DNA from: Raoultibacter timonensis
GTDB taxonomy: Bacteria > Actinomycetota > Coriobacteriia > Coriobacteriales > Eggerthellaceae
DNA: 64,000 nt
Assembly: GCF_900240215.1 (NCBI RefSeq)
Contig: NZ_LT964679.1
Span: forward strand, 2,391,942 to 2,455,941
Direction: 5' to 3'
Shown here: in pieces, positions 54,465 to 58,103 of the stretch
Position numbering within the stretch: the first letter of the stretch is position 1
How the letters are laid out: each line of letters opens with the position of its first letter
Notes under the pieces: generated by a model
What the model saw: the letters and a program-made list of their open reading frames with translations, nothing else
The model's database searches: none
What the model was told of the DNA's origin: nothing
Made by a program: the position numbers and the translations under genes

Positions 54465-54713
54465 GCGAGAACCCCGTTCTACGTGGCGAAGCTTTGGCCG
54501 AAGGTCCATCACACCATGGACGGCCTCGTAACGAACCTGCAAGCGCAGGTCATGGGCCAGGACTACCAGCCGATTCCCGGCCTGTACGCTGCGGGTGAAA
54601 TCGCCGGCGGAACACATGGGGCCGTGCGTCTCGGCAGTTGCGCGATCACCGACTGCGTCGTGTTCGGACGAATCGCCGGGCAGGAAGTAGCGAAAGAGGA
54701 AGCGTCGGCGTAA
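54465..54713 (+). pseudogene. 3' remnant of a fumarate-reductase-like flavoprotein gene
   Basis: About 83 codons, ending at TAA 54711-54713. The visible sequence, RTPFYVAKLWPKVHHTMDGL followed by GLYAAGEIAGGTHGAVRLGS and FGRIAGQEVAKEEA, is the C-terminal flavin and substrate end of fumarate/urocanate reductase-like proteins. FAD domain, Tat signal and start codon are missing, so it cannot be an active enzyme. Similarity stops near 54465. The family motif is normally TMGG; here it is TMDG. A terminator hairpin follows. Confidence 0.8.
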
Positions 54714-54743: not shown

Positions 54744-54777
54744 GGGGACTGTATCGTTTCGATACAGTCCCCGTTTC
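54744..54777. terminator. Bidirectional terminator
   Basis: Perfect 14-bp stem CGGGGACTGTATCG / CGATACAGTCCCCG with loop TTT, between the reductase remnant and the converging MFS gene; on the plus strand followed by TTTCACTT. Confidence 0.7.
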
Positions 54778-54779
54778 AC

Positions 54780-56813
54780 TTAGCCGTTTTCAGAACTTCT
54801 TGGCGCGGCACAGGGGCTTGCGGAAAGCTGAAAGGGTATGCGGCGGTCGCGTACCACCTTCTTGGCGAAAACGGTGAACGCCGTAGTGGTCGTCATGCCG
54901 ATTTCTTGGCATACGGATTCCATATCGCGCATCGCATCGGAGTCCAGCACCAAGGTCACCACGACCGTATCCCTTGGGATGTCAGCCAGAGCCGACGCAG
55001 CGGCAGAGGCATGTGCGGCGGGATTCGGCGCATCTTCAATCGGGCATATGGCAGCGGGATTCGGCGCATCGACAACCGAGTCCAGCGCACCGGCAGCAGG
55101 TTCTGCGGCAACAGCTACAACCGGCACATCCCCAACCGACAAGATTGCAGGCGCGGCGGCAGCCGGCGCGGCAACGGGCACCTGCGGCTGCGCAGAGGGC
55201 GCAAGTTCGGGTTCAACAGGGGGAACAACCGTCGCGCCGCCATCCGCTTCCCCGGCCGAAGCCCCCTCTGCCGGCTCCTCGCTCTCGGCAATGCTCATTC
55301 CTTTCGGGATAAGCGCCCACACGATAACGGCTACCACTATCGTCAGGACACCGCCGATAATGGCAGTGGTGACGATGGAGTCGTCAAACGCCGCAGCACC
55401 CAGATCATGCAGCTTGTCCAAACCGGTCTGTTTGGCGATTTCCGCAGTAACGGCGAACGATTGCTCGCAGAGGTCGATTGTTTTGCCGTCCAAGCCCAAA
55501 GCCGCCAGCTTGCCCGTGCTCAAACCTCCGCGGTAGATGATAGACGCGACGCTTCCCAAGATGGCGACACCCAGCACATTGCCCATATCGTAGGATACTT
55601 CCTGCAGGCTGCCGGCACTCGATGCCTTCTCCGCAGGCGTTTCCTGCATCATGAGCGTCGCACCGAGAGCCAGCGATCCCGAGCCGAGACCCACGAGGCA
55701 CGTAGAAGCGATGACGGGAACAAGCTCCAGGTTGTCGCGGAAGAACGCGAGCATGATCATACCGAAGGCTGCGACGATCAGGCCGCCTGCCACCACGTTG
55801 CGCGGACCCATCTTTTGCGCAAGCACCGGTGCCAACATGCAGCCGATCAGGCTGGCGATGGCCATGGGCACGAGCTTGATGCCCGCTTCAAGCGGATTGT
55901 CGCCGTTCACCAGCTGGAACCACTGCGCCAACAGATACAGCAGCACGGCCATGGCGAACGTGGAGAACAGCGTGGCAACAACGCCCGCAGAAAACGGCTT
56001 ACTGCGAAACAGGGAGAAATCGACGAGGGGATTCTTCGATTTTATGCAGCGGAACACGAACAGCGCCATGAGAACCAATCCGACAGCAAGCGCGATAATA
56101 CCTGCGCGATCGAACTCGAGCTCGGCCGCCACATGCTTGATGCCCCACAGCAGCGCCACCATGCCCACAAGGAACATGACCGATCCCAGAAGGTCGAAGC
56201 TGCCGGGATTTTTCAGCTTCACCTCGGGAAGGATGAGAATGCCCGCAACAAACGCCACACCCATCAGCGGCACGTTCATGAGAAACGCCGCGTGCCACGA
56301 AAAGCTATCGAGCAGCAGGCCGCCCACCAACGGTCCGAACGCCATGCCGAGGGCACTCACGGCCGACCACACAGCGATGGCGACGGCGCGTTCCTTCGCA
56401 TCGGTGAAGATGCTGCGAATCATGGCGATAGTGACGGGCATGATGGCGGCACCGCCGATACCCAACAGGGCACGCAAAGCAATGAGCTGCTCGGGGTCTT
56501 CCACCAGCAACGCGCCAGCAGATACACCGCCGAAGATCAGAAAGCCCATAAGCAGCATGCGCTTTCTTCCGAAGCGATCGGAAAGCGAGCTGGTTGCCAC
56601 GATAAGGCCCGCCAAGACAAGCGAATAGGAATCGACGATCCAAAGCAGCTGTTCAGAAGTCGGTTTCAGGTCTTTCGTGATATCCGGCAGTGCGATGTTG
56701 AGCACCGTAAGGTCGATGGTAACGACGAACTGCCCCAGTAAAATGACGGCAAGCGACGCCCACAGCAACTTTTTGGGTATAGCGGACGGCTTCATGATGA
56801 TGTTGTTGTCCAT
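54780..56813 (-). CDS. MFS (DHA2/EmrB-QacA) transporter fused to a C-terminal RelB/DinJ antitoxin-like domain
   Basis: 677 residues. Residues about 15-500 are a 14-helix drug:proton antiporter-type MFS protein (TIDLTVLNIALPDITKDLKP, SDRFGRKRMLLMGF, GIGGAAIMPVTIAMIRSIF). A Pro/Ala/Glu-rich linker of about 105 residues with a repeated DAPNPAA follows. The last 65 residues contain TVVVTLVLDSDAMRDMESVC, QEIGMTTTTAFTVFAKKVVR and DRRIPFQLS, which is the RelB/DinJ antitoxin pattern (ribbon-helix-helix plus RIPFxxS). I know of no MFS protein that normally has this. The open frame is continuous, so it is not two genes. It is the last gene of a TetR-lipoprotein-MFS set, and no RelE/YafQ-type toxin gene is near. 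Confidence 0.88.
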   Translation of the reverse strand: MDNNIIMKPSAIPKKLLWASLAVILLGQFVVTIDLTVLNIALPDITKDLKPTSEQLLWIVDSYSLVLAGLIVATSSLSDRFGRKRMLLMGFLIFGGVSAGALLVEDPEQLIALRALLGIGGAAIMPVTIAMIRSIFTDAKERAVAIAVWSAVSALGMAFGPLVGGLLLDSFSWHAAFLMNVPLMGVAFVAGILILPEVKLKNPGSFDLLGSVMFLVGMVALLWGIKHVAAELEFDRAGIIALAVGLVLMALFVFRCIKSKNPLVDFSLFRSKPFSAGVVATLFSTFAMAVLLYLLAQWFQLVNGDNPLEAGIKLVPMAIASLIGCMLAPVLAQKMGPRNVVAGGLIVAAFGMIMLAFFRDNLELVPVIASTCLVGLGSGSLALGATLMMQETPAEKASSAGSLQEVSYDMGNVLGVAILGSVASIIYRGGLSTGKLAALGLDGKTIDLCEQSFAVTAEIAKQTGLDKLHDLGAAAFDDSIVTTAIIGGVLTIVVAVIVWALIPKGMSIAESEEPAEGASAGEADGGATVVPPVEPELAPSAQPQVPVAAPAAAAPAILSVGDVPVVAVAAEPAAGALDSVVDAPNPAAICPIEDAPNPAAHASAAASALADIPRDTVVVTLVLDSDAMRDMESVCQEIGMTTTTAFTVFAKKVVRDRRIPFQLSASPCAAPRSSENG

Positions 56814-57373: not shown

Positions 57374-57396
57374 GTTTCGTCCTTTCATTTATTTAT

Positions 57397-57410
57397 TGTA
57401 CATTTGTACA
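57397..57410. promoter_or_regulatory. TetR operator candidate 1
   Basis: TGTACA-TT-TGTACA, a direct double of a perfect 6-bp palindrome, just upstream of the lipoprotein gene. Confidence 0.65.
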
Positions 57411-57437
57411 TTAGGAAGATACCAGAAAGTGCGCATT

Positions 57438-57453
57438 ATGTACATCTGTACAT
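57438..57453. promoter_or_regulatory. TetR operator candidate 2
   Basis: ATGTACATCTGTACAT, a near-perfect 16-bp palindrome in the same gap, 41 bp from the first copy. Confidence 0.65.
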
Positions 57454-57475
57454 TAAAGTTTTTTGAAAATGTTTT

Positions 57476-58066
57476 CTACTCGTCTTCACCCACAAGCGCA
57501 ACGATGGCGGCGCGGATGGTATCGGAATCGTAGGACGCGCCGTAGATGGCCGTGTCAATGATCAGGCCCGTAAGAAAGGTTGACAAGATTTGCAGCCTCT
57601 CGAGACCGATGAGCGGGGCGTAATCTTGCGCATTTTCCACCAGCGCGCGCTTCCATAGCCCACCGACCTCCGGGTCGCTGACGGCGGCGGCATAGAACAT
57701 GGCGTCGGTACTCACTTGCCGTTCGTCGGCAAGATAGGCAACGACGAAGTCGCACAGCATCTCAACGCCCATCTTTCGACTTCCCACCTGCGCAAGCATC
57801 TCTTGGTTGCGCAGGGCGATCTGCTCTGCAAGCAGCGCAAGACCGGCATGGCGCAAGTCGTCGATGCTCTTGAAGTACTGGGTGGTGGATCCCAGCGGCA
57901 CGCCCGCATGCTCGGCGACGCGGCGATGCGTGAGGTGCCGGGTTCCCTCTTGGGAGATCAGTTCTGCAGCAGCTTCTGCAATCTGCCGCTTGCGACGCTC
58001 CGGGTCGCGCGGTGCCCGCGCCTTCTTCCGCTCCTCCGCCTGTTCCTTGCGGCTCTCTTCGCCCAT
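57476..58066 (-). CDS. TetR-family transcriptional repressor
   Basis: 196 residues. The helix-turn-helix is RHLTHRRVAEHAGVPLGSTT followed by YFKSIDDL, normal for TetR. The N-terminal 20 residues are charged (SRKEQAEERKKARAPRDPER). The ligand domain is not further classified. Its target is probably the same operon: TGTACA-type palindromes occur upstream of it (58082-58103) and twice between it and the lipoprotein gene, so it would repress both itself and the downstream transporter genes. Confidence 0.92.
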   Translation of the reverse strand: MGEESRKEQAEERKKARAPRDPERRKRQIAEAAAELISQEGTRHLTHRRVAEHAGVPLGSTTQYFKSIDDLRHAGLALLAEQIALRNQEMLAQVGSRKMGVEMLCDFVVAYLADERQVSTDAMFYAAAVSDPEVGGLWKRALVENAQDYAPLIGLERLQILSTFLTGLIIDTAIYGASYDSDTIRAAIVALVGEDE

Positions 58067-58081: not shown

Positions 58082-58103
58082 CTAATGTTCAAATGTACAT
58101 TAG
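58082..58103. promoter_or_regulatory. TetR operator candidate 3
   Basis: The 22-bp element running from CTAATGTTC to GTACATTAG is palindromic except for one pair, centred 26 bp upstream of the TetR ATG, and shares the TGT(A/T)CA-AA-TGTACA core with the two other sites. Confidence 0.65.

What the first reader, a model, noticed from the sequence alone, without database searches (positions are those of the whole stretch)
54780..56813. MFS efflux pump carrying a C-terminal RelB/DinJ antitoxin-like domain
Residues about 612-661 (TLVLDSDAMRDMESVC, EIGMTTTTAFTVFAKKVVR, DRRIPFQLS) follow the RelB/DinJ antitoxin consensus, in one open frame with a 14-helix transporter through a Pro/Ala linker. Antitoxins of this kind dimerise and bind DNA through a ribbon-helix-helix. 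No toxin gene is adjacent. This could be a membrane-tethered DNA-binding regulator that couples transport to transcription, or an antitoxin domain held at the membrane that titrates a distant RelE/YafQ-type toxin.
Basis: partly seen in the sequence, partly recalled or inferred. Interest (0 to 1): 0.82.

Follow-up and report, generated by a model that had tools for sequence, protein, structure and literature searches.

The report
Efflux pump with toxin-antitoxin-derived tail
A bacterial drug-efflux pump carries at its end a leftover piece of a toxin-antitoxin system; relatives still carry the toxin part too, apparently disarmed, so a poison-antidote pair seems to have been welded onto a transporter and then reused or slowly lost.

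Summary
Window 54780-56813(-) is one 677-aa frame: a QacA-like MFS pump, a Pro/Ala linker, and a RelB/DinJ ribbon-helix-helix (PF04221 above its cut-off). It is not an assembly error: orthologues in four other genomes of the family (three genera, two single-contig genomes) carry the fusion, and there the tail is longer: MFS + RelB + YoeB-like toxin in one chain. One fusion event is the simplest history; the window's copy lacks the YoeB part and the toxin-binding end of RelB, and several orthologues lack the whole tail.

Both proposed functions are disfavoured. The RHH has lost the DNA-contact residues (R7, K13 of E. coli RelB) in the MFS fusions, while most relatives keep them. The pump sits beside a TetR gene and conserved TetR-type operators, present with or without the tail. 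The toxin-binding segment is absent and the genome has no YoeB or YafQ above cut-off. In the longer relatives YoeB has lost essential catalytic residues.

Best reading: a domesticated, disarmed toxin-antitoxin module acting as a cytosolic dimerisation tail (function inferred, not shown), or, in this genome, a decaying remnant. A contrasting RHH-ABC fusion in related families does look DNA-binding.

The parts
54780..56813 (-). 677-aa fusion gene: MFS efflux pump + linker + RelB-type ribbon-helix-helix
   Evidence: single ATG-to-stop frame; Pfam MFS_1 and RelB above cut-off
55287..56777 (-). QacA-like MFS core, residues 13-509
   Evidence: phmmer to QacA structures 7y58/29om, 423-425 bits over residues 13-509; NCBIfam QacA/B model 434 bits but below its 900-bit exception cut-off
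54978..55286 (-). Pro/Ala-rich linker, residues 510-612
   Evidence: translation; low confidence in the model of the full protein
54822..54968 (-). RelB/DinJ ribbon-helix-helix, residues 616-664; positions R7 and K13 of E. coli RelB are V622 and M628
   Evidence: PF04221, alignments, models show helix-helix and strand-helix-helix (low confidence)
54783..54821 (-). 13-residue unrelated end (ASPCAAPRSSENG) where relatives continue with the toxin-binding segment and YoeB
   Evidence: alignment with three-domain orthologues
54744..54772 (.). perfect 13-bp inverted repeat just after the stop codon, possible terminator hairpin; the only copy in the genome
56843..57388 (-). small lipoprotein-like gene directly upstream, neighbour conserved in most fusion-bearing relatives
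   Evidence: tblastn matches beside the pump in G119, G041, G052, G074, G028, G088, G242; no Pfam match
57476..58066 (-). TetR-family regulator gene
   Evidence: PF00440 33 bits; neighbour conserved
57394..57455 (.). two TAATGTAC-N4-GTACATTA-like operators, starts 42 bp apart, before the lipoprotein-pump genes
   Evidence: 1 mismatch each at 57394 and 57436; 1 hit in five 64-kb shuffles at up to 3 mismatches
58083..58102 (.). third copy of the same operator before the tetR gene
   Evidence: 1 mismatch

Best explanation
A relB-yoeB toxin-antitoxin operon was once fused in frame behind a QacA-like efflux pump in an ancestor of part of the Eggerthellaceae. In the fusion the RelB ribbon-helix-helix lost its DNA contacts and the YoeB domain lost its active site, while the parts that make the RelB fold, and in the longer relatives the antitoxin segment that grips the toxin, stayed recognisable. 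The most likely working of the retained tail is protein-protein contact: two RHH tails pair in the cytosol and hold two pumps (or a pump and a partner) together, with the dead toxin domain as a folded cap in the longer relatives. The window's protein is the short form: pump, linker and RHH only. Shown: the fusion, the longer orthologues, the loss of DNA-contact and catalytic residues, the TetR gene and operators. Inferred: one fusion event (moderate tree support), dimerisation, and any effect on transport.
For: Three-domain orthologues of 786, 764, 764 and 730 aa with YoeB_toxin PF06769 at 60-72 bits; RelB over cut-off in one, weak in another, below reporting in two, where alignment shows it. 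The four fused RelB+YoeB parts form one group (88/92 support, 85% of bootstraps) within stand-alone operons; all tails lie in one 10-member pump clade with 100/99 support. R7/K13 lost in the 4 distinct fused RHH rows scored, kept in 40/45 and 43/45 others; the C, G, A and P core positions are unchanged in the fused rows. E. coli RelB R7A and K13A lose repression but still oligomerise (PMC2812701). YoeB essential residues E46, R65, H83, Y84 (PMC12620021): all four present in 27 of 31 stand-alone toxins, in none of the fused ones. Selection on the fused parts between G242 and G074: dN/dS 0.40/0.18 for RelB and 0.41/0.20 for YoeB (two methods), against 0.68/0.90 for the linker and 0.10/0.05 for the pump.
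Against: Dimerisation is not shown; no complex could be modelled. Among the ten pumps of the clade, four lack the tail, one keeps a fragment (G119) and the window's copy is cut short, so it is dispensable. G074-G028 differ too little for firm dN/dS. Window-G041 RelB dN/dS is 0.64, a sign of weak constraint in the short form. Residue counts are not corrected for relatedness.
Confidence: 0.47

Rival explanations
1. Evolutionary scar: the tail has no function in this genome and is being lost after the toxin-antitoxin fusion decayed.
For: Tail absent in G052a, G053 (Paraeggerthella hongkongensis, 87% identical pump), G088 and G338, a fragment in G119, truncated in the window; RelB dN/dS window-G041 0.64 against 0.23 for the pump.
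Against: The frame is open, and the RHH still scores above the Pfam cut-off with core residues kept; RelB and YoeB in G242/G074 look constrained.
Confidence: 0.35
2. Membrane-tethered DNA-binding regulator coupling transport to transcription.
For: RHH fold of a family that binds DNA; the C-terminus should be cytosolic by the positive-inside pattern (my reading).
Against: DNA-contact residues R7 and K13 replaced in the MFS fusions but kept in most homologues; TetR gene and paired operators occur in pumps with and without the tail; no palindrome found in the 90 bases directly before the window's pump start.
Confidence: 0.08
3. Antitoxin held at the membrane that titrates a distant RelE/YafQ/YoeB toxin.
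For: RelB family membership; a sub-threshold YoeB-like frame exists elsewhere in the genome (17.6 bits, cut-off 27).
Against: The toxin-binding half of RelB is absent; no YoeB above cut-off and no YafQ; the other RelB genes sit beside PIN genes or are fused to a nucleotidyltransferase-like domain. ParE/RelE families were not all searched, and the assembly is 93% complete.
Confidence: 0.04
4. Assembly or frameshift artefact joining two genes.
For: None found; the closest pump (Paraeggerthella) lacks the tail.
Against: The same order of domains in G041, G074, G028 and G242, of which G041 and G074 are single-contig genomes.
Confidence: 0.02

Closest known systems
Fused antitoxin-toxin single-gene modules (YefM-YoeB, RHH-YoeB) surveyed in PMC11980606
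   Same: RHH antitoxin followed by YoeB in one chain, as in the three-domain orthologues
   Different: Here the pair hangs on a 14-helix transporter and both activities look lost; the main text of that survey does not contain the words transporter or MFS (its supplements were not read)
[quoted passage not shown]
   Same: A RelE-superfamily toxin domain joined to a membrane part and placed in the cytosol
   Different: ToxM has its toxin domain at the N-terminus, a TM region and an extracellular domain, not an efflux pump
QacA-type DHA2 efflux pumps with a TetR-family regulator
   Same: Pump core 423-425 bits to QacA structures; neighbouring TetR gene
   Different: QacA (514 aa in 7y58) ends where the linker begins; no RHH tail
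MtvT/MtvA, an inactive plasmid TA pair reused as a regulator (PMC11826091)
   Same: A toxin-antitoxin pair without toxicity kept for another role
   Different: MtvTA acts by binding DNA; here the DNA-contact residues are gone
SulP/SLC26 transporters with a STAS tail (own knowledge, not checked here)
   Same: A cytosolic domain known from regulators fused to the C-terminus of a transporter
   Different: Different transporter fold and unrelated tail

Membership tests
RelB/DinJ antitoxin (PF04221) | Sequence match above the curated cut-off | tested here: met
   24.6 bits whole protein, 29.9 tail alone, cut-off 22.4; below the cut-off of TIGR02384
RelB/DinJ antitoxin (PF04221) | N-terminal RHH able to bind DNA (R7, K13) | tested here: not met
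   R7 to V and K13 to M in the window; by residues only, no binding assay
RelB/DinJ antitoxin (PF04221) | C-terminal toxin-binding segment | tested here: not met
   Profile matched only to position 49 of 82; sequence ends 13 residues later
Type II toxin-antitoxin module | Cognate toxin gene next to the antitoxin | tested here: not met
   None downstream in the window; fused YoeB domain only in G041, G074, G028, G242
YoeB/Txe toxin (PF06769), for the longer orthologues | Sequence match above cut-off | tested here: met
   59.8-72 bits, cut-off 27
YoeB/Txe toxin (PF06769), for the longer orthologues | Essential residues E46, R65, H83, Y84 | tested here: not met
   G041: E kept, R to K, H and Y lost; G074/G028/G242: R, L, H kept, Y lost; stand-alone: ERHY in 27/31
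QacA-like DHA2 MFS efflux pump | Full-length match to QacA | tested here: met
   423-425 bits over residues 13-509; D34 and D61 invariant in an alignment of seven pumps
QacA-like DHA2 MFS efflux pump | Drug export activity | not testable with these tools
   needs expression and efflux assays
RHH transcriptional repressor | Operator in its own promoter | tested here: inconclusive
   The palindromes found match a TetR-type operator present in tail-less pumps too; no separate RHH site seen

The most novel reading that the evidence does not exclude
A complete toxin-antitoxin pair was captured as a regulatory tail of an efflux pump: the disarmed YoeB and the DNA-blind RelB form an intramolecular or pump-to-pump clasp whose opening changes pump assembly or turnover, for example by making the tail a protease target as free RelB is, and the window's pump keeps a minimal, toxin-free version of that clasp.
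Probability: 0.25. Interest if true: 0.85.

Novelty: new variant of a known kind. Interest (0 to 1): 0.6.

Why it matters
Fused antitoxin-toxin genes are known, and inactive pairs reused as regulators are known; a toxin-antitoxin pair fused to a multidrug transporter, with both enzyme and DNA-binding sites lost, was not found in the papers searched here. If the tail works, toxin-antitoxin modules can supply assembly domains for unrelated membrane proteins, and the same family offers natural forms with the full tail, the half tail and no tail, so its role is directly testable. It also warns that a RelB or YoeB label on a genome annotation need not mean an active toxin-antitoxin system.

Tried and rejected
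Assembly error: rejected by independent genomes. YoeB remnant downstream of the window gene: none found by tblastn or in the three frames. Partner toxin elsewhere in the genome: no YoeB above cut-off, no YafQ. RHH-bound operator for the pump: the palindromes are shared with tail-less pumps. The repeat after the stop codon as a mobile repeat family: single copy in the genome. Wider spread of the three-domain fusion: in 396 genomes sampled across the phylum no new long fused frame was seen beyond G041 and the window. Structure of the full protein: mean pLDDT 46.5, too low to use beyond secondary structure. Literature: no paper on such a fusion found; only open-licence papers are held.

Full report
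What is there. The frame at 54780-56813(-) is 677 aa with an ATG start. Residues 13-509 are a QacA-like pump (423-425 bits to QacA chains; 434 bits to the QacA/B model). A Pro/Ala linker follows, then a RelB/DinJ ribbon-helix-helix at about residues 616-664 (PF04221 24.6 bits whole protein, 29.9 for the tail alone, cut-off 22.4; DinJ chain 9lew by phmmer). A predicted model of the tail shows two confident helices, and its first Foldseek matches are DinJ and RelB, with weak E-values. The model of the full protein is of low confidence but shows strand-helix-helix at 618-655. Fourteen of fifteen hydrophobic segments fall in the pump; basic loops alternate as expected for a cytosolic N-terminus and hence a cytosolic tail; the fifteenth, 551-569, is an Ala/Val/Pro stretch of the linker and is probably not a membrane helix (my reading).

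Relatives. Among 149 related genomes, 15 have the pump at E 1e-60 or better; the family-wide search of 138 genomes added G242 and G338. The nearest pump, 87% identical, is that of Paraeggerthella hongkongensis and has no tail. The pumps of G041, G074, G028 and G242 continue through RelB into a YoeB-like domain (786, 764, 764 and 730 aa), confirmed by PF06769 at 60-72 bits. PF04221 itself is over cut-off in G041, weak in G242 and not reported for G074 and G028, where the RelB part is seen by alignment. G119 keeps a fragment of the RHH; G052a, G088 and G338 have none. The window gene has no YoeB trace downstream.

History. All tails lie in one ten-member clade of pumps (100/99). The fused RelB+YoeB parts form one group (88/92; 85% of bootstraps) inside the stand-alone operons of the class, on long branches, which calls for caution. 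One fusion followed by several losses is the simplest reading; it is not proven.

Disarmed sites. In E. coli RelB, changing R7 or K13 abolishes most repression while the protein still oligomerises (PMC2812701). The window has V and M there; the other scored MFS fusions have P and L; 40/45 and 43/45 distinct non-MFS homologues have R and K, including the RHH-ABC rows. YoeB needs E46, R65, H83 and Y84 (PMC12620021); 27 of 31 stand-alone toxins have all four, none of the fused ones does. These are counts of related sequences, not independent events.

Selection. Between G242 and G074 dN/dS is 0.40 (NG86) or 0.18 (YN00) for RelB, 0.41 or 0.20 for YoeB, 0.68 or 0.90 for the linker, 0.10 or 0.05 for the pump. 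So the domains look constrained, less than the pump and more than the linker. For the window against G041 the RelB value is 0.64 by one method only, so constraint on the short form is unclear.

Regulation. A TetR gene and a small lipoprotein-like gene adjoin the pump in most relatives. Sites like TAATGTAC-N4-GTACATTA, usually two with starts about 42 bp apart, occur near the pump or tetR gene in 15 of the 18 pump loci scanned, with and without tails; not in G041, G052a or G104 (position relative to genes read). That points to TetR, not the tail, as the pump's regulator; binding itself is inferred.

Mechanism. I favour a cytosolic dimerisation tail made from a domesticated toxin-antitoxin pair (0.47), with a non-functional scar close behind (0.35). 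The regulator and titration readings are kept at 0.08 and 0.04. What is shown is the architecture and the loss of sites; dimerisation and any influence on transport are inferred from the RHH fold and its conserved core.

Contrast. In other families of the order the same RHH is fused in front of an ABC transporter ATPase, keeps R7 and K13 in the rows examined, and the motif AAAGACA-N-TGTCTTT lies in all eight loci fetched, just before the start codon in the seven that could be lined up.

Noticed in passing
L097 2583-3524, L098 1525-2412, L099 2195-3085, L100 2461-3483; also L136-L139: RelB-type RHH fused in front of a MacB/LolD-like ABC ATPase, followed in L097, L098 and L100 by a ~499-aa frame that looks like its permease; the motif AAAGACA-N-TGTCTTT lies just upstream of the start, a candidate operator.
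   Followed up: partly
L101 2411-2953, L102 2002-2616, L107 1932-2711, L047 1195-1659: RelB-type RHH fused to a nucleotidyltransferase-like domain; L047 is in the window's own genome.
   Followed up: partly
window 54483-54713: 76-aa frame on the + strand matching only the last positions (361-413 of 414) of FAD_binding_2, apparently the end of a broken flavoprotein gene converging on the pump gene.
   Followed up: no
window 54744-54772: Perfect 13-bp inverted repeat directly after the pump's stop codon, one copy in the genome, perhaps a terminator hairpin.
   Followed up: partly
window 57394-57455 and 58083-58102: Three TetR-type operators of the form TAATGTAC-N4-GTACATTA, the first two with starts 42 bp apart; the same pairs occur near the pump in most relatives.
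   Followed up: yes
L057 2632-4365: The G088 orthologue of the pump ends in a lysine-rich tail where others have the RHH.
   Followed up: no
L048 1456-2114, L050 893-1659: Two RelB genes next to PIN-domain genes in the window's genome, apparently ordinary toxin-antitoxin pairs.
   Followed up: no
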